NCBI GenBank assembly: GCA_029931535.1
Contig: JAQPZY010001670.1
Location: forward strand, 6,596,501 to 6,660,500
Direction: 5' to 3'
Origin: Margaritifera margaritifera
Lineage: Eukaryota; Mollusca; Bivalvia; Unionida; Margaritiferidae
Length of the DNA stretch: 64,000 nucleotides
The notes below the pieces were generated by a model. The model worked only from the letters and a program-made list of their open reading frames with translations. It was not told where the DNA came from and did no database searches. Positions 2,563 to 64,000 of this stretch are shown here, in pieces; the stretch's first letter is position 1, and each line of letters opens with the position of its first letter. Made by a program: the position numbers and the translations under genes.

Positions 2563-2984
2563 AAATATTCCTCACAAAATATCTTGAACAATACAATGAC
2601 AATTAAACAAGACAAAACAATCAAAATACTTACTCTAGTGTGTCTGCCGAAATCATTTTTTACGGTCGGTCTCCGTTTTATCTCTCTTCAACCAGAGGTT
2701 GGCCGATTTTCATCAAAGGCTCAGAAGACATCATGGACCACCATTGATCCCTTTATTACTTATAACACCTCAAAAAACATCCCATATTTGGTCTTAAACT
2801 CCCCAAATTACAACAATAAGGTAATCAATTAACAGCTTGTTGTGTACACATCTTAGCTGTTCTTTAACAATTCTAATCCTATTACTCTGCCATGCATCAT
2901 CGAACTGGTCATTGTTCAGGTGGAACATTTCCGGTTCCCAGTAGACTAGTTCTGTTTGGTTTCTCTAATGTGTTGATAGAACAA

Positions 2985-3240
2985 GTAAAAATACCATACA
3001 TGGGTTTTTTAATTCAATTTTTAAAAAATTTCTTTTAATTTTCAAATGCGGTAGATTTTTACTATAAAACGGTACTATATTTTTACTATAAAACGGTAAA
3101 AATACCATACATGGGTTTTTTAATTCAATTTTTAAAAAATTTCTTTTAATTTTCAAATGCGGTAGATTTTTACTATAAAACGGTATGTGCGGTAGATGGA
3201 CTTTAAAACGGTATTTTTGACCTACCGCCGGTAGAATCAC
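2985..3240. repeat. tandem duplication (~110 bp) with internal ACTATAAAACGGTA repeats
   Basis: AAAATACCATACATGGG occurs at about 2987 and 3097 with the following 80 bp conserved. The submotif TTTTTACTATAAAACGGTA occurs three times, and a related GGACTTTAAAACGGTA closes the block. Short GCGGTAG/CTACCGC inversions suggest an old MITE end, but no target-site duplication is seen. Confidence 0.6.
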
Positions 3241-3244
3241 ATGT

Positions 3245-3425
3245 ATGTAGAGGTATCATCTGCAAGGGCTTTCACCCTACCTTCTACATGACCACCTGCT
3301 TTCTCCCTTTCACCAGCCCCCTTTACCTGAGAAAGGGAGACCTAGAGGTGTTATCTGCAAGGGCTTTCATCCTATATCTTACATGATCACCTGCTCACTA
3401 CCTCCATTCCCCAGCCCACTTTACC
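3245..3425. repeat. two diverged units of the 96-bp minisatellite
   Basis: ATCTGCAAGGGCTTTCA occurs twice, about 93 bp apart, followed by the same CACCTGCT and CCCACTTTACCT blocks as in the array at 736-1060. It is the same repeat family at a second nearby site. Confidence 0.75.
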
Positions 3426-3479
3426 TAGAATAGGAAAATTGAAGATACAAAGTATTGTTATAAGTATGAAATTGAAAGA

Positions 3480-3690
3480 CAGGTAAATTTATATCCACAC
3501 ACTTGGTTTTGTAAGGCTGGTAAATATATATCCACACATAAGGTTTTGTAAGATAAGTAAATATACATCCACACATTAGGTTCTGTAAGACAGGTAAATA
3601 TATATCCACAAATAAGGCTTCACTACTCTGTTGTAAGACAGGCAAATATATATCCACACATTAGGTTTCACTACTCTGTTGGAAAGAAAA
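3480..3690. repeat. minisatellite of about 43-60 bp
   Basis: The block GTAAATATATATCCACACATTAGGTT and variants occur five times. Some units carry an extra CTTCACTACTCTGTTG insert, so unit length varies. Confidence 0.8.
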
Positions 3691-4070
3691 TCTGTGATAG
3701 TAAATTAAAAAGCAAAGGCTAATAAAGCACACTGAAGGGTTACAAATTCCCAGAAACTTTAGCAAAATGGCATGTTACTACACACCCATTTAATCTTACT
3801 TGGTTGATCTGATGTTTAATATGGATGTTCAATCCATATTTCTGTATCACACACCCAGACTGGATCTATTTCTGGGTTTTCACTTGCATCTGCGTATTGA
3901 TATGCTTCAAGTTACTGGATCAAACTTTTATAAATATCACTTTGTTTTGAATTCCATACCAGAAAGTATTTGGAAAGTGTCCAAAAAATACAAAACCATA
4001 TTGGTGTTTTGTTCAGAGTCGGGAAAGAATTTTTGATATGGCCTATATCTGCCTGGACATATCCCTACGC

Positions 4071-4181
4071 CAAGGGTGTCAAACATACAGCCTGCAGGCC
4101 TGATATAGCCCACCACACTCATTATTTATTATTATTTAAATCAAATCTGGCCTGCGACAGCAAATGAGTTTGACACTCCTG
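4071..4181. mobile_element. 111-bp hAT-type MITE with 8-bp target-site duplication
   Basis: The termini CAAGGGTGTCAAAC and GTTTGACACTCCTG are inverted repeats. Flanks are CCCTACGC on the left and CCCTAGGC on the right, an 8-bp duplication with one mismatch, which fits hAT insertion. The interior has the complementary blocks GCCTGCAGGCC and GGCCTGCG next to the ends. No coding capacity. Confidence 0.9.
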
Positions 4182-7479: not shown

Positions 7480-7800
7480 GTTTCCATGACTCTACTCATG
7501 TCTCTGACAACTTCTGCACCTAGTATACCTGCCTCTAATCTTGAGTCTGACAACTTTTGTACCTAGTATAACTGCATCTAATCCGGTCTGTGACAACTAC
7601 TGTGCCAAGTATAACTGCCTCTAATCATGTATCTGACAACTTCAGTACCTAGTATAACTGCCTCTAATCATGTCTCTGACAACTACTGTACCTAGTATAA
7701 CTGCCTCTAATCATGTCTCTGACAACTTCAGTACCTAAGAATAACTGCCTCTAATCATGTCTCTTACAACTTTTGTACCTAGTACAGAGAAATCTTTCAA
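7480..7800. repeat. 43-bp minisatellite, about 7 units
   Basis: CTGACAACTTCTGTACCTAG with variants recurs every 42-44 bp from about 7504 to 7762, each followed by TATAACTGCCTCTAATCATG. It abuts the piggyBac remnant. Confidence 0.85.
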
Positions 7801-8913
7801 AACCGAACCCTCTCTATACCAGAATCCCCTCAAGAGCTTTAGGGTCCCAAATTTTTTCTTCTCAAATATCATTTTAATCCCAGTAAACTGAAACCTCTCA
7901 ACTCGGAAAACTGAAGAAAAAAAAATTAAATCCCAAATTTCAGTTATGCACCTCCCCCCCCCCCATAAAACCAAAACTCAAAATTGGAAATGTACCTTAG
8001 TTGCTAAATACTGAAACACGCTTGACCAGATCATTTACAATTGGTAAATACTGTAGTAGTCTTATTGGTGAGAAAATGTCCCAAGGACATGTGAGGTTAA
8101 AACAATACTTGACATGTGCCAACACTGATTAGTTCCAACAAAAGGCTAATCCAGAGTCTTTGCACCATAAAAAAGAACCATCTTTTAAAGCAAATTATCA
8201 ATAAATGCTTGTATATAATCCATTTAAGAAAGATTATGTTAATCTGCTTATTATCTAATTGTGATTGATGCTATGTGTTAGTGTAAATGTTCTACAGAAC
8301 ACTTTGTTTGTTTGTCGTTGCAATTAAATAACTGGGCTTTATTAAACAGGCATGCGGCCTCACTTTTGATGCTTTGCCGACGGAGACTGACAAAGCAGTA
8401 TTCTAAAAGTCAGATTCACTCAACTGATTTTCAAAGGAGAAAAATCATTATATACATGTATTTAAGTAGCCATGACTGTCATTTGTTTTCACTCACATGT
8501 TAAGATGTCAGAATGATCAGCTAAGTGTTGTAGGTTTGAACTATCCTTACAGGATAAAATTAGTCTGATCAAAGATTATGAATCTGTGCCAAAACCTATG
8601 TTGAAGAAACTGGGAGAAGAATTGGCTTAGGAACATTATGAATTATATGGAGTATTTAAACATTATGGATTATTATTCATAATTCTAATGGACTTTGACT
8701 CCCTTTCTACTGTAACTCGTTTTCCACAGATATTCAAGATGAAAGGTTGCTGACACTAATCCTCCGATGATGCAATTTCATAATCTGATGGAATATTCAA
8801 TAAATCAAATCCCCCAAAAATCTTTTTCACTGTCTGAACTCACCTCCATTGGAATACTTGCTAGTCAGTATATATGTTTACCTCATGAACAAAAAAAAGA
8901 ACAATGCAACCTA
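7801..8913. other. non-coding stretch
   Basis: Contains a poly-C run near 7953 and AT-rich sequence. No gene or RNA recognised. CAGTAAACTGAAACCTCTC near 7881 faintly resembles a pogo-type terminus, but no partner end was found. Confidence 0.35.
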
Positions 8914-10683: not shown

Positions 10684-10895
10684 AATGGTTCTTTCTTATG
10701 CATCGGGAAAAAAACAATTCCCAATGGAAATCGTTACACCAAAGGAAATTCAGTGGCAATGACCTTGCTCTGGGTAATCTAAACCTTTCCTTGTTATAAA
10801 CTTTCAATCATTTACCTGATCCATTGTGATTTGAGGACAACTTTAGCTTATAAGCAGACATATGAACAGACATACAAAAATGTATACATACATAC

Positions 10896-11061
10896 CAGTA
10901 TCTGTTGGCATCTGAGATGAGAAAAAGGATCCCCATCAGCCCATACAGGTATGAGTGATTGTTCCAGGCTGTCTTGTTCAACAGGAAGAGGTACCAGTAG
11001 CAGATGACAAATATCAGACAGCTCAATCGGTATATCAGACCAAGACAAATACCCAGGGCAC
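10896..11061 (-). CDS. GGCX: gamma-glutamyl carboxylase-like copy A, exon 3
   Basis: Encodes about 55 residues of GGCX, the ER membrane enzyme that uses vitamin K hydroquinone, O2 and CO2 to turn Glu into Gla in secreted proteins. The segment starts [14 protein letters not shown], passes a hydrophobic stretch ([13 protein letters not shown]), then [13 protein letters not shown] and DANRYW. The WNNH block matches the human enzyme around Trp157-His160, a functionally important site. The acceptor is CCCCAATAG and the donor CTG|GTATGT. The entry phase fits exon 2 of the same gene. A MITE remnant lies 31 bp upstream of the acceptor. The following exon, which should carry the catalytic Lys region, was not found to the left, so the gene probably leaves the window. 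Confidence 0.88.
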
Positions 11062-11092
11062 CTATTGGGGAAGGAATTACAACATCAATCAA

Positions 11093-12125
11093 TCGCGTAT
11101 AAGCCGATACCAACTGCAAACTGCACACACCCAGATCTGCCATCGCATAATGAGCCGGCAAATCTGGATCAATGCAGTTGTAAGGACTAATCAGTAGAAC
11201 AAACAACATCAAGACCACACTTTTGTGATTCAGAGTATCCTATAAAGGTCACTATCTAATGTCATCTGGTACAAAACCCAAGAATTTATCAGCATCATCT
11301 GAGCGACCAATTATAGTGCTGAAATCCTCCATCGTCATCTAGTCATCGTAAATATCATCCAGCTCCGATTTCTCCTCTTTACTGTCATATGCGGGTGTTT
11401 ATGTGGAGACTGAGCTTGGGCTCTTTAAGTGACACTTCGATCATACAGTCTGTGAAATCTATTAAAAGATGCAACTTAACAGGTGTCAGTTGTGCGGCAA
11501 GATCACAGGGAGTTCAAATAACCACCCGATACTTCGCACTGAACAAGTATCAACTACACGGCTTGATTAAAGGGTTGTAATGTGGGAAAACAAAGAGGGT
11601 GCTAAGGGATTAAGGTCAAACACATATTTGTAAGACGTGTAGGATTCTACTTGGCAATGAACAAGTATCAAATGCGCAGCTCGATCAAAAGGATTGTCAT
11701 CTTGAAAACAAAGTCAGGCAGTGCTGCCTTTACAAGCCACGGGCTTACCAGCCCACATGCACTGGCAGATAACATGGGAAATATCACTTAGGAATTAGCC
11801 CTGGCCAATGGAAAAAGAAAATATAAATCAAATCAAAATTTTTATTGCATCAAACAGTGTAAATACAGCAAAACACAAAATATAATGCAAATACAGGTTG
11901 TTTAGGCTCGCACAAAAATGGAAGCAATATACTTACTAGTAAACATGCACGGTAAACAACACTGATGGACACTTCACTTTGTGGTGGATAATATTTAATT
12001 TACCAGTAATATTTAATGGGTTGACTTATGTGCGGGTCATGCACTTTTTCATGTTTTTACCTATTCAGTGGTGGTGGTGGTGGGGCGGCTTATATGCGAA
12101 TGTGCTTATACGCGAGTATATGCGG
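11093..12125. mobile_element. probable ~1.03-kb relative of the double-hairpin MITE, or two separate ends
   Basis: The left side (11093-11219) matches the MITE family from TCGCGTATAAGCCGATACC through the first hairpin and into AACAAACAACAT, then stops. The right side ends GCTTATACGCGAGTATATGCGG followed by TA, a good family terminus. On the minus strand at about 11370-11250 an acidic stretch reads SELDDIYDD, then a stop, then MEDFSTIIGRSDDADKFLGF. It resembles the tail of a transposase. If the two ends belong together, this is a longer family member with coding remnants. They could also be independent insertions. Confidence 0.45.
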
Positions 12126-15359: not shown

Positions 15360-15538
15360 TTAAGTTAATCTTAACAAAATACTGCATGTATTCCAATTTT
15401 CTGCACAGTAAGAAAGGGAATGATCTTTATATTTCAGCACAAGTAAACAGACAGAGAATTCTTTTGGAGAGAGGTAATGAAGTAGGAAAGTGGATGGGTA
15501 GTAAAGGAGATACATGCTGGTAGGTGTGCACATCTTAC

Positions 15539-15694
15539 TTAACAGTATGCTCAGGTAGACCATACACATCCATTCAACAGGGAAGGGTTTCAGAAAGTCA
15601 AAGAGGGGAAACTGGCACTGGTCTGGATCTCCCCATATCTCAGAGACTTGATGCAGGCCTCGCTCATGTATCGTGTCCATCACCATAAGGACTC
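15539..15694 (-). CDS. GGCX: gamma-glutamyl carboxylase-like copy A, exon 2
   Basis: Exactly 52 codons, entering and leaving in phase 1. It reads VLMVMDTIHERGLHQ, then CQFPLFDFLKPFPVEWMCMVY. The RFPL-D-LKPLP-WM-VY pattern is diagnostic of GGCX between its first two membrane segments. The acceptor is TTCGTAG|GA and the donor TTAA|GTAAG, both good. It joins in frame to exon 1 (completing a Gly codon) and exon 3. The equivalent exon of copy B at 59568 is clearly homologous and two codons longer. Confidence 0.9.
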
Positions 15695-15769
15695 CTACGA
15701 AGGGGAAAAATTACACATTAATATACTTGCCTACCAACCTAAATGCATCAACTTACTAGTAACATTCAT

Positions 15770-20612: not shown

Positions 20613-23175
20613 TACCCTAACCCATACCTTATATCTTGGATCAGGCTACGCCTACTACCATAATTCACAGCACATTATAATACCTGTGACTGTTGACCCT
20701 GATTGGACAGCTACACCTGGCTCCCTCTGGAAAGTTCTTTCTGGTAGATCAGAAGGCCAAGCAGATATGCTCATCCCCTAGCTGTGAAGGCAGATGGCAC
20801 CAGCTGTGTGGAGCGCATCAGCTCAGGTGCAGTAGAGAACTGATGGCTATCCACTGCATCCAGACTCATCTCTAGATGTCTCAACATTGTCGTGTAACTG
20901 GATTCAGATAGGCCTGGATGAGATAGTGAGGGTGATGCTGTGCAACCTGCCCTCACTTAAATCCAACTTATGCAAAAGTCATGACATTATTCCCCTCCCC
21001 CAACCAGATACCTTAAAGTCCTTTGGTGATGGGCGAGTGGCAAGCAGCAGGTGTGGATACGCTGGGGGCTGTAGCTGCAGACCTGCACACAGGCAGCTCA
21101 GGGCATAGGCTCACTTTTCACTGGACGAAAGCAGCAGTGGAACTTGGCAGCCCCCTGGGTGACTGAGCAGCCCTTTTTTGGATCACACTGCTCACCTCCA
21201 CAGCATGAGGAAGGGGCTAGAAAAGGTGCCCTAAACAATGCCTGCTTCACCAGAACCCTGGTCAGCATACTGCAGCTAATGGAGATCACACCTTAGCGAT
21301 TGAAAATATAACAAGAAGACAAAGGCGACACAACTCATCATCAGTGCCTGAACGTGTGCACACTAATGGCCAGTACATCAGCACTATCACCAGAGAGAAC
21401 AGTTCTAGTTGGTAGAGAACTGGCCAGATTCAATATCCAGTTAGCAGTCCAGAGTGAAACTTGTCTAGCTAACGAATGACAACTCACCAAAGTAGGAACT
21501 GGCTACACCTTCTTCTGTAGTGGCCGAAGTAAAGAAGAGTGCCGTGAAGCTGGTGCTGGGTTTGTCATCAAACCACAGCTAGTCAGCAAGCTTACAAATC
21601 TCCCAAAGGGTGTGAATAACAGACTAATGCGAGTGAGATTCCCACTGTCTGGAAAAAAACATGCAACTATCGTCAGCACCTGTGCACCCACATGACCAAC
21701 CCAGATGAGATCAAGGACAAATTTTATGAAGACCTGGAGTCTCTTATTTCCGAAGAACTACAGTCAGACAAGCTCATCATCCTCGGTGACTTCAATGCTA
21801 GAGCTGGCACAGATCACCAGACATGGTCAGGTGTCATTGGCAAAAATGTTTTTGGCAAATGCAACAACAATGGACTCTTCCTACTGAGGAAATGCGCTGA
21901 ACACAACCTCCTAATCACCAACACAGTCTTCGGCCTGCCAAACCACAACAAGACGTTTTGGATGCATGCACACTCCAAGCACCAGCATCTCGATGACTAT
22001 GTCATCGTCAGGAGAAGAGACAGGCAGGATGTCTGAGTGACAAAGGCCATGAGAAGTGCAGAATACTGCACTGACTACAGGCTCATAGTCTCCAAACTCA
22101 ATATCCATATTCTGCCTAGCAGACAACCACAAGGCAAAAAAGTGTCCAAAAAAATTAATATCTCAAAATTTAAACAGGAGAATGTGAAACAGGCATTTGT
22201 CAAAGAACTGTGCAGCCAAGTAGAAACAACCGATATGAACTCTGAAAATGTCGAGGAAAATGGGGCATCATTCAGAGACTCTGTGTACTCAGCTGCATCC
22301 AAAACCATCGGTCCCACCACATGTAAACATCAAGATTGGTTTGATGAGAATGATCTGCCATACAGAGATATCTGAATGAGAAACATTGGCTCCAAAAGGC
22401 TTGTTTAGAAGACAGCACTTCATGATCGAAGAAGGCAGCCTTCAACAACATCAAGAGGACTGTCCAATGAAAACTCAGAGAGTTGCAAGACTCGTAGCTG
22501 AGCAATAAGGCAGAAGAGATTCAGTTCTACACAGACATGAATGACATGAAGAACTTCTATGATGCTTTGAAGACAAAATATGGGCTACAGTCATCAGGAA
22601 CATCTCCAATACTGAATGCTGACAGCACCACACTGCTCACTGACAAAGAAAAGATACTTGAAAGATGGGCAGAACACTTCAACAACATCCTCAATGAACA
22701 GTCATCTATCAGTGAGGAGGCAATTGATCAACTGCCCCAAGTGGAAATCAACACCTCACTTGCTCATCCTCCAATGATGGCTGAAACTGAGCAAGCAATT
22801 GACCGGTTGTCAAATGGCAAAGCACCTGGAGCAGATGCTATACCAGCTGAAGTCTACAAAGCTGGAGGCTCACACATGGAACAGAAACCGACTGAACCCT
22901 TCTAGTCAATGTGGACTCCAGGAACTATACCCCAGGAGTACAAGGATGCATCCATTGTCCACTTGTACAAGTGGAAAGGCAACAGACAATCCTGCGACAA
23001 CCATATGGTCATCTCCTTGCTGTCAATAGCTGGCAAAATCCTCGCCAGAATTATGCTGAATCACTTTGTGCATCACACTGATCAAGGGCTCCTGCCTGAG
23101 AGTCAGTGTGGCTTCAGGAAAGGACAAAGGACCACAGACATGGTATTTGCAGATGTCAACAGATTACTTAACTGA
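20613..23175 (+). mobile_element. RTE-like LINE, inverted 5' segment (5' leader, endonuclease, start of RT), degraded
   Basis: About 700 bp of non-coding leader is followed by an AP-type endonuclease: NVCTLMAS near 21352, a stop at about 21478, AGAGFVIKPQLVSKL, a one-base deletion at 21691, then IILGDFNARAGTDHQTW and HLDDYVIVRRRDRQD. Next comes TDYRLIVSKLN, where the catalytic His of the family's TDHRL block is Tyr. RT begins with AIDRLSNGKAPGADAIPAEV (about 22795-22855), then SQCGFRKGQRTTDMVFA, stopping at the breakpoint near 23145. Frameshifts at about 22037, 22378 and 22905 show it is dead. Confidence 0.88.
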
Positions 23176-39847: not shown

Positions 39848-40404
39848 AAAGTGAAAAAAGAACCGATCGTTTTCAAAGAACCTTGAAAGAACGTATGTGG
39901 AAATATTTTAGACATCAAGAAACTCTCCGATACATGGACATGTTACCACGTCTGGTCAAGGCTTGCAATTAATCGTACTGTCGTAGCATCTGATGTGTTC
40001 CAGAAGAAGTGATACCTCAAGCAGAAGAGACCGTGTTTGATCGATTATTTAGAACGTCGGAGACCTGAAAACAGAAAGAAGAGTTAAACACCGGAGATTG
40101 GGTTTGCATTGGAAAAACAAAATGTACTATTGACAAAGGCTTTTTACCCAGCTGGACGACTGAATTGTTTCGTGTCATAGGACAAATTCGTGGACGTGTC
40201 CCACCTGTCCATAAATTGGAAGATAAGAACGGAGAAGTGTTGAAAGGAACTTTTTTGTTGCCCGAGTTACCACGAGTGAGCAAGAAAGACGACATGTACG
40301 TTATCGAATGCATTCTCGATCGAAGAACACGTAAAGTGGGAATACATGGTTTCCAAGAAGTCAAAGTCCTTTGGAAAGGATATCCACCCAATTTCAATTC
40401 TTAG
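39848..40404 (+). pseudogene. Polinton/Maverick-type integrase, C-terminal half with chromodomain
   Basis: One continuous frame holds the end of the rve catalytic core (DRFQRTLKERMWKYFRHQ, TLRYMDMLPRLVKACN). It continues into an SH3-like DNA-binding part (NTGDWVCIGK, PSWTTELFRVIGQIRG) and a chromodomain-like tail (DMYVIECILDRR, FQEVKVLWKGYPPNFNS). This is the arrangement of integrases of Polinton/Maverick-type elements. Three in-frame stops (about 39969, 39993 and 40069) and no recognisable first half show it is dead. Small virion-type genes follow directly downstream, as expected for such an element. Confidence 0.7.
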
Positions 40405-59567: not shown

Positions 59568-59729
59568 GTATATTTATGGTAATTGAGGCCTTTTTCGATG
59601 CTGAGAGAGGTTTGTTCCGTGCTGATGAAAAGTGGAGAGATCCGGAAGAATGCAGATTTCCTCTCTTTGACTTTCTGAAACCCCTTCCCCTTCATTATAT
59701 GTGCCTAATATATCTTGGTTGGATACTAG
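59568..59729 (+). CDS. GGCX: gamma-glutamyl carboxylase-like copy B, exon 2
   Basis: 54 codons in phase 1, with acceptor TTACATACAG|GT and donor CTAG|GTGAGC. It reads FMVIEAFFDAERGLFRADEK, then ECRFPLFDFLKPLPLHYMC and LIYLGWILG. The ERGL and RFPLFDFLKPLP blocks match copy A exon 2 and known GGCX proteins. The position where copy A has EWM reads HYM. No exon 3 is seen before the right edge of the window. The virus-like cluster from 60146 on therefore lies in intron 2, or the gene is cut there. Confidence 0.88.
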
Positions 59730-59769
59730 GTGAGCCTTGTAAAACTTGTAATTCACTAAGGAATCAAGC

Positions 59770-60145
59770 AAGTTAAACTAGTAAGTTCAATAGAGATGGA
59801 ACGACACACAAGAAGCAAACATACAAAGAGGGAAACACACAGGCAGGCAGAACGAGATTTACAGGCAGAGAACTAAATGCAGATCAATAGACAAATCGAT
59901 ATATAGAATAATGATATTGGTGTAATGAATGAGATAATAGAGTCACTTTGTGAGTTTTAGACCCGAGAGCTCGGAACAAGTCAGCCAACCCTTCTATACC
60001 CCATGACTTTAGTATTTTTACCTTACTCGTTACACGCGACCGCATGCGCGGTTGGGTTTATAAACATATAATCGTAGTGGGTAATCACTACGATTTATAT
60101 CACAAGGTCGCGACGGGAATTTCCGCGGTGATGTGTTATTGAGGT
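59770..60145. other. left flank of the younger virus-like cluster
   Basis: Base composition changes from AT-rich to balanced, CpG-containing sequence at about 60020-60060 (ACGCGACCGCATGCGCGG). No terminal inverted repeat can be fixed because the other end of the element is outside the window. Confidence 0.4.
60070..60095. terminator. 10-bp perfect hairpin at the end of the virus-like gene cluster
   Basis: AATCGTAGTG, a 6-base loop, CACTACGATT. It lies 51 bp beyond the last stop codon of the minus-strand gene row. It could be an RNA-processing/termination structure or part of the element's terminus. The role is inferred from position only. Confidence 0.35.
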
Positions 60146-60631
60146 TTACTTACTAATATCTGCTTGGTCGCTAGCGCTCCGGTTTCGTATCTGTGCTAGG
60201 AGTTGCCAGTGGTTTTCCATTTCCACTAGCACTGTTTCGAATTCGGCCACGCTAATGATTATATCTTCGATAGCCACCGAGTACAGCTTAGCAATCGTAT
60301 TAAGACTAATGTGTGCTGCCGCCAGAAGTTCCGAATACATACGTACTCGCGAATGCAGTCGTAACGAAATTAATTTACTGGAACCGCCTGCGACACCGTT
60401 TGATATAGCCCCAACAAAAATTCCGATTGGTGCACCTATAATAGTTCTCGTGGCTGTTATTTCAGCAACACCTAGACCAGCAGCTGCTGCAGCGGCAAGT
60501 CCGCAAATAGCATCAACGACCATAAACACGCGTTTGTATTTCACGAGCTACGCTGTTCTCTGAACAATTTCATTTTGCAGTTGCAGTTCCGCTTCGATTA
60601 TCTTTTCACGTCGGTAAGCTGAAGGGTCCAT
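60146..60631 (-). pseudogene. Gly/Ala-rich membrane-type protein of the virus-like cluster, one in-frame stop
   Basis: The ATG at 60631 overlaps the stop of the preceding gene by one base (TAATG). The frame begins MDPSAYRREKIIEAELQLQN, meets a single TAG at 60550-60548, and then continues without a break for 132 codons. It passes a hydrophobic GLAAAAAAGLGVAE block and a Gly-rich GAPIGIFVGAISNG block (likely membrane segments), then a helical basic region and an acidic end (SVAEFETVLVEME). Proteins with this two-part pattern occur in many invertebrate genomes next to other virus-like genes. Their function is unknown. The lone stop suggests recent inactivation or an assembly error. Confidence 0.6.
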
Positions 60632-61341
60632 TATAATTCTTCTATTAATATTGGCATAGTGAAGACTAATTGCTCGACAGGCTGGCCTTGTTCAGGTTCA
60701 ACACTCACACGCACTTCCAACCAATTGTTTTTCTTCACTGGTACAACCGTCATGCAATCATAGAAAATATCTTTTGGAGGAATACTTAAGACTCCGGCGA
60801 TTGTACGTTCCCGAGGTTTGACACTACGCTCATATAGAAACAAACCGATTACGCATGGGCGTTGTGCCTGCAATAGTTCTCGTTTTCGCCCGAGAACTGT
60901 TACACGGACAAGTACGTCCTTGTTAAATAACAGTCGAGATCTTTCTCTTCTCAGTTGAGTCAGTATTGGTTTAGCATACTCAAAGGGGAATTTAATTGAG
61001 GTGGATTTAGCGGTGAATATTACTTCATCGTTGTAGAAACAATACCTGGATGTTTTCGCTGGTGTTGTAATCAACGGCTGAGCATTTTCGCGTGCTACTG
61101 CTATGACTTCAAGCTGGCCTCGAGTTGGTATTGGTACCTCAGGGTGGTCCCAACTATAGATTTCTATCTTACCCTCGCGTAGATTATATCTAAGCGTATA
61201 CGAGTGTCTGGTAACATCATTTTGAAGCAGATATTCGTTGACAAGTGGAACAAAATCACTATCGATGTTGGCATTACTGGTCAGCCGATCCAACACCCGG
61301 TCGTTAAATTCCGCAACCTCATCACCGCGGTCAGAATCCAT
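60631..61341 (-). CDS. intact 236-codon protein of the virus-like cluster, possibly a minor capsid (penton-like) protein
   Basis: The first ATG (61341) gives MDSDRGDEVAEFNDRVLDRL and the frame is open to the stop at 60631, which overlaps the next gene's start. There is no signal peptide or membrane segment. The body is rich in alternating hydrophobic and charged residues (TLRYNLREGKIEIYSWD, DVLVRVTVLGRKRELLQ, WLEVRVSVEPEQGQPVEQLV), suggesting an all-beta fold of about the size of a single jelly roll. I do not recognise the family by sequence. A minor capsid role is inference from length, predicted beta content and position in the cluster. It is the only fully intact complete gene here. Confidence 0.55.
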   Translation of the reverse strand: MDSDRGDEVAEFNDRVLDRLTSNANIDSDFVPLVNEYLLQNDVTRHSYTLRYNLREGKIEIYSWDHPEVPIPTRGQLEVIAVARENAQPLITTPAKTSRYCFYNDEVIFTAKSTSIKFPFEYAKPILTQLRRERSRLLFNKDVLVRVTVLGRKRELLQAQRPCVIGLFLYERSVKPRERTIAGVLSIPPKDIFYDCMTVVPVKKNNWLEVRVSVEPEQGQPVEQLVFTMPILIEEL

Positions 61342-61435
61342 CACTTATATGTAATGATAAATCTAATCTTAAACACAAACGCCAAAGACGGTTAAGTATC
61401 TTTCCGGATAAACGTTGAATGCTTTGAACTGAATT

Positions 61436-62134
61436 TCATCCCCTGGTGACCAATGATTTTGATACTGTATATGTGAAAAGTTCTGCAACAACAGTGGCCG
61501 GTCTATCAATACGTGGTGACAAAAAACCAAGATGCCGCTGGTCATTTATCAACATTACTATTCTATCCCACAAGCTTTTAGTTCCGGTTATGATAAACAA
61601 GTTCGATCCAGACTCGTGCACCTTTAAGATGTGACGTTTAGGTCTATCAAAGCCATTGCTAAGAGAATGTACAATAAGTCGGCCATTTAATAAGCTTAAA
61701 AGATCAGCTTTTTCCTCTCCTTCTTTGATTAATACTCTTTGAATTTGGATCCATGAAGTTACCACGCGTGGTGGTGCGGGTACGTCTGCGATATGTTCAT
61801 ACACGTATTGTTTCATTGTAGCAGCAGAATCGTCAACGTAGTCTTTGATAAACGGAATCGACCTACCAGAGTCTTTGATTTCACCGGTTTCACTGATCGT
61901 GACCAGGTTTTGCGCGACAGCATATCGCAGCCTCAGCACAATATCGTTGATGTCAACGTTGAATGTTTTAAGTTTTCCAATTTGATCTTAGCAAATCACA
62001 AGCTCGCTCGGGTCGACGTCAACAACAACCCGGCTTGTAAACTCAGTCAAATCTTCTTTGGTGGCAAACCTGGTCAAATCCGCATCGGCGCCGCGTCGTC
62101 GCGCGGTCGAACTTCCGTAAATGTTAATAGGCAT
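61436..62134 (-). pseudogene. unrecognised virus-like cluster protein (232 codons) with one in-frame stop
   Basis: The ATG at 62134 gives MPINIYGSSTARRRGADADL, 11 bp after the stop of the protease fragment. The frame runs to a TAA at 61990-61988 and then continues as DQIGKLKTFNVDINDIVLRL into a 167-codon open part ending SKSLVTRG. Motifs: a basic N-terminus, KHEDLTEF-like charged helix (seen as TKEDLTEFTSRVVVDVDPSE), and a C-terminal half with beta-like segments (SNLFIITGTKSLWDRIVML). No family recognised. The conserved frame on both sides of one stop indicates that the gene was functional until recently. Confidence 0.5.
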
Positions 62135-62145
62135 TTTGTATACTA

Positions 62146-62397
62146 TCAAGTGTAGTTTAATGTAAAATCAATAAACGTTTGCGTGGTTGGTGAACGCTCG
62201 AGTGCATGCAACGCTTCAACAACAAGGTGACCGCATATTGGCCCATCCAGCCGAGTTTGCAACGTCAGCGTTGAATAAAACAGCAGTTGTCGTCCGCCTT
62301 GGGTTAAATAATCAACAACTTCAGTCGGCGGTGCAAGCCCATATGAGTCAAAATACAAAAGATGTGGAGGTGTTCCAGGTTCTGTTGTCAAATCCAT
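62146..62397 (-). pseudogene. adenain-like cysteine protease, C-terminal fragment
   Basis: The frame holds LLYFDSYGLAPPTEVVDYL and then RLDGPICGHLVVEALHAL. A FDS-G-PP-E block followed by a Cys in a CG context, about 40 residues on, is the second half of adenovirus/Polinton-type maturation proteases (Ulp1-like fold). The first half with the catalytic His is not recognised in the 145 bp before it, where all frames are interrupted. It is therefore truncated or frameshifted. Known family role: cleavage of capsid precursor proteins during virion maturation. Confidence 0.6.
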
Positions 62398-62542
62398 CTT
62401 AACAACTCTGGTTTATCTTGTGCGGGAATAATCGCTACAAGTTCATACCGCATAAAAACACTTCAGAAATGTTTGACTGACTTTTTCATCGCTAGTAAAT
62501 CAAAATTGGCCAATGGACGCACTGCAGCCGTCAACGGCAAGG

Positions 62543-63024
62543 CTACAACCGAAGGCCACTTCCGCTCGGGAGCCTTTGGTTTCCACGCCTGGATAATCGA
62601 AGACCTTTACCTTTTTTTTTTTCTTTTTTTTCTTCTTCAGTTTTACATAAATGTTCCCAACCGACCGCCTTTTTTTTAAAAGCCATTCCGGATACAGTTC
62701 CGACAGCCTCTAATGCGGCTGTTTTTGCAACTGCCGGAGCCGCAGCCGTTTGAAACGCTGGAATCGCCGCAAGGAATGGAAATATTTTCCGGTCTTTTGC
62801 ATTTGTTTTACCTCTGACTTTGATAACGCTAATGTCACCGAGGTGTTCCTTCGTTTGGCCGCATTGAGCTGATTAAGTTGCATTTAAGTCAACCACACGG
62901 GGATAATTCCAATTAACCTTTCAGGATAAAGTTTCGATATGACCCAGCAATCGTTGCGTGCTGCGCTTTTGATTTTCGCAAGCTGGTTTTCGCTAAGGCC
63001 AACCTTAACTTCGTGGTAGGACAT
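62543..63024 (-). pseudogene. small basic virion-type protein with hydrophobic core, stop and frameshift
   Basis: The ATG at 63024 opens MSYHEVKVGLSENQLAKIKS. One TAA follows after about 46 codons, then MQLNQLNAAKR and SVTLALSKSEVKQMQKTGK. A one-base shift leads to an Ala-rich hydrophobic stretch (FLAAIPAFQTAAAPAVAK) and a Lys-rich region, closing with GKGLRL and GSGLRL. An opening with a VKVxLSxxQ pattern, a hydrophobic core and terminal GxGL repeats define a family of small proteins seen in invertebrate Polinton-like elements. They are reminiscent of core or membrane-active virion peptides. The lesions make it a pseudogene unless recoding is used. Confidence 0.55.
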
Positions 63025-63165
63025 TATTATTTACAAATGTAACAGGTTCATATACCATGTTGCGACTTTAAAAAAAAATTCTACAGGCGCGTGCATAACC
63101 CTCATTCGACCACTAAAACCCTGCAACAACAGAGTCGTGTCGGAGAGAATGACAGCAATGCATCT

Positions 63166-64000
63166 TTACTCTATGTCACCGGGGTCTACACGTGCTTTGA
63201 AGTACATGTCCACCACGGACTGCTTCAAGAGGTCCAGATGCTTGAGGTTAAAGTAATAAACCGGATACAACGTACGAAAGTCGTGCTGGGAAATCTGCAA
63301 GCCTGTGTCAACATTTTGGTCTCGGTCCAGGTATTTCAACAGTCGAGGATACACACGAGTGATTTGATAGTTGTCAAAGTTGAGCAAAATGTTTTCGGTT
63401 GGTTCTTGGTGCCCGTTCAACGTTAGCGAGACTTCAGTCACTCCCTGTTTTGCAAATATCATTGGACTTTCCAGTTGGTTGTTTAAATTATCTACGTTTT
63501 GAAATGCAATAAACACGTGCCGTGGTGCGCTAATACCTTGTTGAGTACTTATATGCCATGAGAATTCTCCTCGAACGTCTCTAGTCTGTGAGTCTGTGGT
63601 CATTGCAAGAAATGCAATTGTAGATGTTCCGCCAGACATCATAAATGATGCTAAACGTTCGTCTATGGCTACTGAGGGATTTATTGATGGCATCCAAAGT
63701 GTAAATTTAGAGAATATAACTTTACCCGCATCGGGAATGGCGACACCATCGCGATGAATTGCATCGTTGGCGTTGCCTTTTCTGTTTAACGTGACTGTGT
63801 GTTTGGCCCCGAAAATAACTTTATGAAAGTCTCTACAAAACCCAAATATGTATGACAGTGGAATCACGCAGGAAAACTCCCCGCGCACATTAAACTGGGC
63901 TCGACGCTGTGCAAATCCATCGTTGAAATTTGGATTGTCTCCAGTGACCGCATTAGCGTTGCCGAGGTCAACGTTGTATCTGACAAACATCATAGACGAG
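63166..64000 (-). CDS. putative major capsid (jelly-roll type) protein, cut by the window edge
   Basis: The frame is open from the right edge to the stop at 63166, at least 277 codons. The first ATG inside the window (63993) may not be the true start, because the frame runs through it. Blocks: FNDGFAQRRAQFNVRGEFSC, IPLSYIFGFCRDFHKVIFG, KHTVTLNRKGNANDAIHRDG, GKVIFSKFTLWMPSINPSV, and a C-terminal YYFNLKHLDLLKQSVVDMYF. The IFGFC-D--KV--G-KHT-TL-RK block marks a family of uncharacterised proteins, common in invertebrate genomes, that travels with integrase and protease genes. Capsid identity is inferred from that company, size and beta-rich pattern. No lesion is seen in the visible part. Confidence 0.6.
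   Translation of the reverse strand, partial: SSMMFVRYNVDLGNANAVTGDNPNFNDGFAQRRAQFNVRGEFSCVIPLSYIFGFCRDFHKVIFGAKHTVTLNRKGNANDAIHRDGVAIPDAGKVIFSKFTLWMPSINPSVAIDERLASFMMSGGTSTIAFLAMTTDSQTRDVRGEFSWHISTQQGISAPRHVFIAFQNVDNLNNQLESPMIFAKQGVTEVSLTLNGHQEPTENILLNFDNYQITRVYPRLLKYLDRDQNVDTGLQISQHDFRTLYPVYYFNLKHLDLLKQSVVDMYFKARVDPGDIE

What the first reader, a model, noticed from the sequence alone, without database searches (positions are those of the whole stretch)
60070..64000. Virus-like gene cluster inside an intron of a carboxylase paralogue
Six minus-strand genes in a row (capsid-like, small basic virion-type, adenain-like protease fragment, two unknowns, Gly/Ala-rich membrane protein) lie right after exon 2 of GGCX-B, where intron 2 should be. 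The content fits a Polinton-like or related DNA-virus integration, but several members are unassigned. The cluster is compositionally distinct from its surroundings and continues past the window.
Basis: partly seen in the sequence, partly recalled or inferred. Interest (0 to 1): 0.88.

Follow-up and report, generated by a model that had tools for sequence, protein, structure and literature searches.

The report
Fossil Polinton virus in GGCX intron
An intron of a GGCX-like (vitamin-K carboxylase) gene in an unnamed, likely animal, genome holds a 13.9-kb Polinton, a virus-like DNA element with inverted repeats at both ends, whose genes are mostly broken by stop codons or frame breaks, so it is likely dead; gene trees put its capsid gene and its end genes with different groups of sister copies, which likely reflects mixing between old viruses.

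Summary
Following the contig past the window gave the rest: an RVE integrase, a P-loop frame, family-B polymerase motifs and the matching terminal inverted repeat. The element runs from window 59,936 to the equivalent of 73,788 (13,853 bp), and the next GGCX-like exon lies about 3.7 kb beyond it, so it sits in one intron. Target duplications of 5-6 bp were seen in three of four copies with both ends. The 63,166-64,000 product ends a capsid protein (PF21738); a modelled relative is a double jelly roll. Most of its genes are broken, as in the sampled sister copies; its repeats differ by K2P 0.14, so it is an old fossil. The genome holds many relatives (126 capsid matches scored, all over cut-off). 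The most interesting result: copies carry two capsid lineages and two end-gene lineages in at least three, perhaps four, combinations, and the window copy is recombinant (AU p 3e-49 and 2e-4, groups named after seeing the data). ORF3, ORF4 and ORF5 look like accessory genes; their functions are unknown.

The parts
59568..59729 (+). exon 2 of a GGCX-like gene (GGCX-B); donor GT at 59730
   Evidence: HTTM PF05090 E 5.9e-9, profile 26-67; next exon (L011:3472-3666) covers profile 69-126
59876..59935 (+). one unit of a host minisatellite with units of about 50 bp (three more on the far side of the element); its last 6 bases, TGAGAT, are the likely left target-site duplication (right side TGAGAC if the last T of the repeat is counted, else GAGAC)
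59936..60073 (+). left terminal inverted repeat (partner at L010:9788-9652, window-equivalent 73,788-73,652)
   Evidence: 119/136 identical, E 3e-44. The right repeat begins AGTAGTG, as do most ends of other copies; the left one here begins AATAGAG. K2P between the two repeats 0.141
60146..60547 (-). ORF5, Gly/Ala-rich accessory gene; the same frame goes on beyond an in-frame stop just upstream, so it is likely cut
   Evidence: no relative in the protein database; matched in 28 of 32 sister loci
60631..61344 (-). ORF4, 237 aa, open, accessory gene of unknown function
   Evidence: matched in 30 of 32 sister loci
61436..62143 (-). ORF3, accessory gene of unknown function, one in-frame stop
   Evidence: matched in 29 of 32 sister loci
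62146..62560 (-). adenain/Ulp1-like protease remnant (C-terminal part 62,146-62,397 in one frame, start in another)
   Evidence: recalled motifs; no Pfam hit; dN/dS 0.38-0.51 against six copies
62560..63024 (-). small basic virion-type gene (starts MSYHEVKVGLSENQ), broken by frame changes
   Evidence: named by recalled resemblance only
63166..64000 (-). [quoted passage not shown] the N-terminal part lies at L010:1 to about 430; premature stop at 63,166-63,168 and one more stop upstream
   Evidence: PF21738 E 3.5e-15; relatives P0001-P0019; fold of relative P0008

Best explanation
This is the capsid-side end of a 13.85-kb Polinton (Maverick) element that has inverted repeats at both ends, lies inside an intron of a GGCX-like gene, encodes a predicted double-jelly-roll capsid protein and has stop codons or frame breaks in most of its genes, so it is likely dead. 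Shown: the two inverted repeats, a near-exact target duplication in a host minisatellite, an integrase domain, a P-loop frame, four polymerase motifs in order, the capsid family, the breaks, dozens of sister copies, and conflicting trees for capsid and end genes. Inferred from the known Polinton scheme: a linear double-stranded DNA was copied by its own protein-primed polymerase, packed by the ATPase into capsids matured by the protease, and pasted into the minisatellite by the RVE integrase with a 5-6-bp duplication; then the copy decayed by mutation. Also inferred: before insertion, an ancestor recombined in the protease/small-basic-gene region (about 62.3-63.1 kb), so this copy has the end genes (ORF4, ORF5) of one lineage and the capsid gene of another. 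No role in the host gene is indicated.
For: Inverted repeats, 119/136, E 3e-44; the right repeat begins AGTAGT like the (AGT)2 ends of vertebrate Mavericks (PMC8097293, section 7). Duplications TGAGAT/TGAGAC (window), TACAAG on both sides (C79), TTCATC on both sides (C1202), counting the terminal T. L010: rve PF00665 E 5.9e-4; P-loop frame with hits to a dozen ATPase families, best E 7e-4, all below cut-off, among them FtsK and Pox_A32; Endonuclease_7 E 9.4e-5, just below cut-off. Polymerase motifs YADFE, NLRGYD, NSVFG, CTDTDS in order; 0 of 2,000 shuffles hold all four. A polymerase piece also lies 3.6-6.1 kb from the matched block, in the same arrangement, in six other copies. Capsid fold of a relative. 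The block recurs linked in other copies. Recombination: two identity classes per module, trees, AU tests p 3e-49 and 2e-4.
Against: No piece of the polymerase reaches Pfam's DNA_pol_B_2, and phmmer against PF03175-positive frames of the same genome gave nothing better than E 0.31 for L010 (tblastn E 0.008 at best). The ATPase stands below all cut-offs and the protease has no Pfam hit. One of four copies with both ends (C247) shows no duplication, and the window copy's is imperfect. ORF3 and ORF4 show little or no purifying selection (dN/dS 0.56-1.01 and 0.48-1.16). Penton and PW genes are assigned by position and look only. For the recombination: the AU test of the window with all seven a+B rows gave only p 0.02, and the groups were named after the identity classes were seen.
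Confidence: 0.93

Rival explanations
1. A Polinton-like virus (PLV) or another small double-jelly-roll virus without polymerase B and RVE integrase integrated here; the integrase and polymerase pieces belong to a different, neighbouring element.
For: The modelled capsid fold is as close to virophage and giant-virus capsids as to anything else, and Pfam does not name the polymerase.
Against: One inverted-repeat pair encloses integrase, polymerase and capsid blocks, and the polymerase piece lies 3.6-6.1 kb from the matched block in six other copies.
Confidence: 0.04
2. The mosaic of capsid and end genes arose after insertion, by gene conversion or ectopic recombination between copies already in the host genome, not between replicating viruses.
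For: Many similar copies sit in one genome, which gives ample substrate.
Against: L022 and L049, at separate places on one contig, share the a+A combination and are sisters in both trees, so such a combination spread as a unit at least once; the two class-B copies compared in codons (L003, L005) differ from the window capsid piece at dS above 1 with dN/dS 0.19 and 0.30, so the lineages diverged under selection.
Confidence: 0.3
3. The capsid cluster is kept by the host as a domesticated gene set.
For: ORF4 is still open over 237 codons.
Against: Capsid, small basic gene, protease and ORF3 are broken; ORF4 dN/dS against copies is 0.48-1.16.
Confidence: 0.01

Closest known systems
Vertebrate Mavericks (PMC8097293; section 7 and found passages read)
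   Same: Ends begin AGTAGT (right repeat here); 13.85 kb lies in the published 12.7-24.6 kb range and the 138-bp repeat in 46-1,447 bp; integrase, then two genes, then major capsid, then protease; accessory genes next to the repeats; most copies degraded.
   Different: Polymerase, P-loop and capsid genes here lie on one strand with only the integrase reversed, whereas most intact vertebrate elements have two modules on opposite strands pointing to the centre; the P-loop frame lies between integrase and capsid genes. Copy number cannot be compared: 126 capsid matches were scored here (a cap; 2,111 candidates), against a highest count of 287 elements in that paper.
Polintons of the 72-element set with PY (major) and PX (penton) capsid proteins (PMC4028283; part 1 of 4 read)
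   Same: Double-jelly-roll capsid, packaging ATPase, adenovirus-type protease, RVE integrase and polymerase B as a set.
   Different: I had no PY sequence to compare with; whether PF21738 covers PY was not tested.
Adintoviruses and other midsize eukaryotic linear DNA viruses (PMC11071296; outline and passages read)
   Same: Similar virion gene set; two rows of the viral fold search are an adintovirus 'penton capsid protein' and a MELD virus protein.
   Different: Only 11-12% identity over those fold matches; no sequence-level relative in IMG/VR.
Polinton-like viruses and virophages (search listings; one passage of PMC11071308)
   Same: Capsid fold: Sputnik and mavirus capsid chains are among the best matches.
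   Different: This element has an integrase domain and polymerase motifs; PLVs mostly lack pPolB and RVE-INT (PMC11071308 passage).

Membership tests
Polinton/Maverick | terminal inverted repeats with Maverick-type ends | tested here: met
   59,936-60,073 against L010:9788-9652, 119/136; right end AGTAGTG, left end AATAGAG; other copies mostly AGTAGTG
Polinton/Maverick | 6-bp target-site duplication | tested here: met
   three of four copies with both ends: 5 of 6 bases in the window copy, 6 of 6 in C79 and C1202 if the terminal T is counted, else a 5-bp duplication; C247 shows none
Polinton/Maverick | RVE integrase | tested here: met
   PF00665 E 5.9e-4 over 94 profile columns; 20.5 bits, below the curated cut-off of 32.6
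[quoted passage not shown]
   four recalled family-B motifs in order in broken pieces, 0 of 2,000 shuffles; no Pfam match; protein priming not testable
[quoted passage not shown]
Polinton/Maverick | packaging ATPase | tested here: inconclusive
   P-loop frame L010:2674-3141; 12 families hit at E 7e-4 to 0.075, all below cut-off
Polinton/Maverick | adenain/Ulp1-type protease | tested here: inconclusive
   recalled motifs only, no Pfam hit
Polinton/Maverick | minor (penton) capsid protein | tested here: inconclusive
   broken frames at about L010:1000-1940 in the expected place; no family match
Polinton-like virus (PLV) | mostly lacks RVE integrase and polymerase B | tested here: not met
   integrase domain and polymerase motifs lie between the repeats
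Adintovirus | adintovirus-type hexon | tested here: inconclusive
   fold match to an adintovirus protein at 11% identity; no sequence comparison made

The most novel reading that the evidence does not exclude
This genome is a fossil record of a freely reassorting population of capsid-bearing Polintons. Two capsid lineages (dS above 1) and two end-gene lineages occur in all four combinations, and the GGCX-intron copy is a recombinant. Such mixing needs two different elements replicating in one cell, so it would be evidence that animal Polintons co-infected and replicated as viruses.
Probability: 0.45. Interest if true: 0.6.

Novelty: new member of a known kind. Interest (0 to 1): 0.42.

Why it matters
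It shows that a virus-like block seen in a raw intron is one end of a full-length but likely dead Polinton, with many relatives in the same genome. Linked capsid, protease and accessory genes with mismatched histories give a direct way to test whether Polintons exchange capsid modules, which bears on the open question of whether they spread as virions. Of the 126 best-scoring capsid matches of the wider family in this genome, 97 have no stop inside (my count of the list), so younger copies exist with which the population could be dated and compared.

Tried and rejected
IMG/VR was scanned six times (MCP fragment, alignment A1, P0018, two polymerase pieces, integrase): no relative. GTDB contigs with A1: none. 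Phage records with the MCP piece: none. PHROGs gave nothing useful for the five window frames. PDB by sequence: none for the capsid profile, chance-like hits for two polymerase pieces.

I tried to confirm the polymerase through PF03175. The genome holds 150 matches on 75 scored of 5,572 candidates, most of them without a stop inside, but the four loci fetched hardly resemble the window element's polymerase. A frame from a sister copy (L057) aligns with the window element's pieces at 45-56% identity yet has no polymerase family hit either. The polymerase label rests on motifs recalled from memory.

The host species was not identified; 'animal' is inferred from the GGCX-like genes and genome size (2.45 Gb). 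I considered host domestication and an assembly artefact and set both aside (broken genes; duplications and linked sister copies). Insertion age in years is not given, for want of a calibrated rate; only repeat divergence is (K2P 0.141; other copies 0.070, 0.119, 0.206).

Limits of the recombination reading: copies were chosen by similarity to the window (a+A), which hides b+B. Of 32 fetched loci, 7 are a+B, 2 a+A, 15 b+A (one, L045, on only a third of ORF4), 1 a with an intermediate capsid (L043, 78%), 4 have a without MCP, 1 has b without MCP and 2 have A without ORF4; the class limits were drawn after seeing the numbers. One b+B candidate (C279) comes from comparing two listings, not from its sequence. 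Trees used the 23 rows with at least 60% of both modules, window included. In the end-gene tree L022/L049 stand beside, not inside, the clade of nine that holds the window, so the window's recombination may be a separate event. In one search overlapping pieces were counted twice for some copies (ORF4 of L003 has 302 codons).

No paper listed was seen to describe such module exchange in animal Polintons; I read only passages or sections of four papers and part 1 of a fifth, so this is no proof of absence.
Full report
What was checked. Minus-strand frames lie at 60,146-64,000 as described. The exon at 59,568-59,729 carries the HTTM domain (PF05090, E 5.9e-9), as do frames of the paralogue at 15,360-15,710 and 10,808-11,239; that this domain marks GGCX-type carboxylases is recalled. 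The contig could be followed past the window (window = G000:C78:6596501-6660500; L010-L013). The next exon is at L011:3472-3666, equivalent to window 77,472-77,666, and takes up the domain profile at 69 where exon 2 left it at 67. So the intron is about 17.7 kb and the element fills 13.85 kb of it.

The ends. The stretch 59,938-60,073 matches L010:9786-9652 inverted, 119 of 136 positions (E 3e-44). The outer end reads AGTAGTGTCACTTTGTG in the right repeat and nearly so in other copies; the window's left repeat begins AATAGAG. This puts the left end at 59,936 and the right end at L010:9788 (window-equivalent 73,788). The element sits in a minisatellite with units of about 50 bp, one on the left and three on the right. 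Uninterrupted units contain TGAGAT; the left flank has TGAGAT, and the right flank has GAGAC after the repeat's final T. Copies on C79 and C1202 show ACAAG and TCATC on both sides, with a T before them; the copy on C247 shows no duplication. I cannot tell a 5-bp duplication from a 6-bp one that shares the T. Four further inverted pairs 12.3-14.7 kb apart (C1023, C190, C223, C783) appear among 40 scored of 608 candidate ends.

The genes. Reading from the right: accessory frames (L010:8865-9191 and 8339-8704), a Rho_N-like frame (7,645-7,926, E 5.9e-5, just below cut-off), polymerase pieces (7,486 to 4,739, minus), the integrase on the plus strand (3,379-4,095, running on in another frame to 4,553; PF00665 E 5.9e-4), a P-loop frame (2,674-3,141), broken frames at about 1,000-1,940, a basic frame (435-860), then the capsid gene, which crosses into the window. 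In the window follow the small basic gene, the protease remnant, ORF3, ORF4 and ORF5. The order integrase, two genes, capsid, protease, accessory region matches the second module of vertebrate Mavericks with its accessory flank, except that the P-loop frame lies in between (PMC8097293, section 7). The polymerase label rests on YADFE, NLRGYD, NSVFG and CTDTDS, recalled family-B motifs, found in order in four pieces; none of 2,000 shuffles of that stretch holds all four, and 89,500 decoy bases hold 2, 2, 5 and 0 of them.

State of decay. The capsid frame ends about 30 residues early and has another stop in its first third; the small basic gene, protease and ORF3 are interrupted, and ORF5 likely is. 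Among 32 sister loci, a single tblastn piece without a stop covering at least 80% of the window frame was found in 0 of 27 with a capsid match, 0 of 30 for ORF4, 0 of 29 for ORF3, 5 of 28 for ORF5 and 6 of 25 for the protease end (a strict measure, since tblastn can split an intact frame). The two repeats of the window copy differ by K2P 0.141 (17 of 134 positions); those of C247, C79 and C1202 by 0.119, 0.070 and 0.206. dN/dS against up to seven sister copies is 0.19-0.61 for the capsid piece, 0.38-0.51 for the protease end, 0.32-0.92 for ORF5, 0.48-1.16 for ORF4 and 0.56-1.01 for ORF3. Capsid and protease were thus under selection in the family's past; ORF3 and ORF4 give no clear signal. CpG observed/expected is 1.18 and 1.32 in the two parts of the element against 0.48 in window 1-59,800, which is odd for an old insertion and is unexplained.

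Copies in the genome. The 3,931-bp query gave 79 matched pieces from 40 scored of 3,152 candidates; apart from the window itself and one 44-base piece (93%) they are 66-89% identical. PF21738 gave 126 matches, all over the cut-off, from 126 scored of 2,111 candidates; 0 of 14 control genomes had one. A polymerase piece gave 153 matches from 150 scored of 6,501 candidates. Candidate numbers come from a loose first look, so only the scored numbers are firm lower bounds. In six copies (C247, C795, C680, C121, C165, C1301) the polymerase piece lies 3.6-6.1 kb from the matched block in the same arrangement as here.

Mixed histories. Identity to the window, gene by gene, splits the copies in two ways: the capsid gene is 83-89% (class A, 19 of 27) or 68-71% (class B, 7 of 27) with one at 78%, and ORF4 is 84-91% (a, 14 of 30) or 75-82% (b, 16 of 30). 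Seven loci are a+B, fifteen b+A, two a+A like the window. The switch in the window copy falls at about 62.3-63.1 kb. In the tree of ORF4/ORF5 the window is sister to L050, an a+B copy (support 97/91), inside a clade of nine that holds all seven a+B rows (100/97); in the capsid tree it lies in class A (98/97 without L043), and the seven a+B rows are a separate clade (100/100) (23 rows). Capsid data reject the window plus L050 (p 3e-49) and, more weakly, the window plus all seven (p 0.02); ORF4/ORF5 data reject the rows without a class-B capsid as one clade (p 2e-4). A fourth combination, b+B, is suggested on C279. Exchange between replicating elements explains this best, since L022 and L049 share the a+A combination as sisters at separate places and the capsid classes diverged under selection; gene conversion between integrated copies is not excluded.

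Verdict. A real Polinton fossil of a known kind in an intron, with many relatives in the genome and a recombinant history that is the most interesting part.

Noticed in passing
L013:3333-5062 (C78:6690501-6700500, about 30-40 kb past the window end): A second broken copy of the same polymerase family (Rho_N-like start, YADFE, Endonuclease_7 region at E 0.0034) on the plus strand; this stretch also has high GC and CpG (0.413; 1.17).
   Followed up: partly
window 40069-40404 (+): Frame ending in a Chromo domain (E 2.4e-5, just below cut-off); resembles the C-terminal end of a retroviral-type integrase by recall.
   Followed up: partly
window 21620-22905 (+): Endonuclease of a LINE-type retrotransposon (PF14529 E 3.1e-5, below cut-off) beside a GC-rich patch at 20-22 kb.
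   Followed up: no
genome-wide: 75 scored candidates with DNA_pol_B_2 frames, many open over 750-1,470 residues, of a polymerase lineage that hardly resembles that of the window element; they look much younger.
   Followed up: partly
window 60070-64000 and L010:1-9788: The element keeps a CpG ratio of 1.2-1.3 although its inverted repeats have diverged by K2P 0.14; the surrounding window is CpG-poor.
   Followed up: no
window 59876-59935 and L010:9790-9944: Minisatellite with units of about 50 bp that served as the insertion site.
   Followed up: partly
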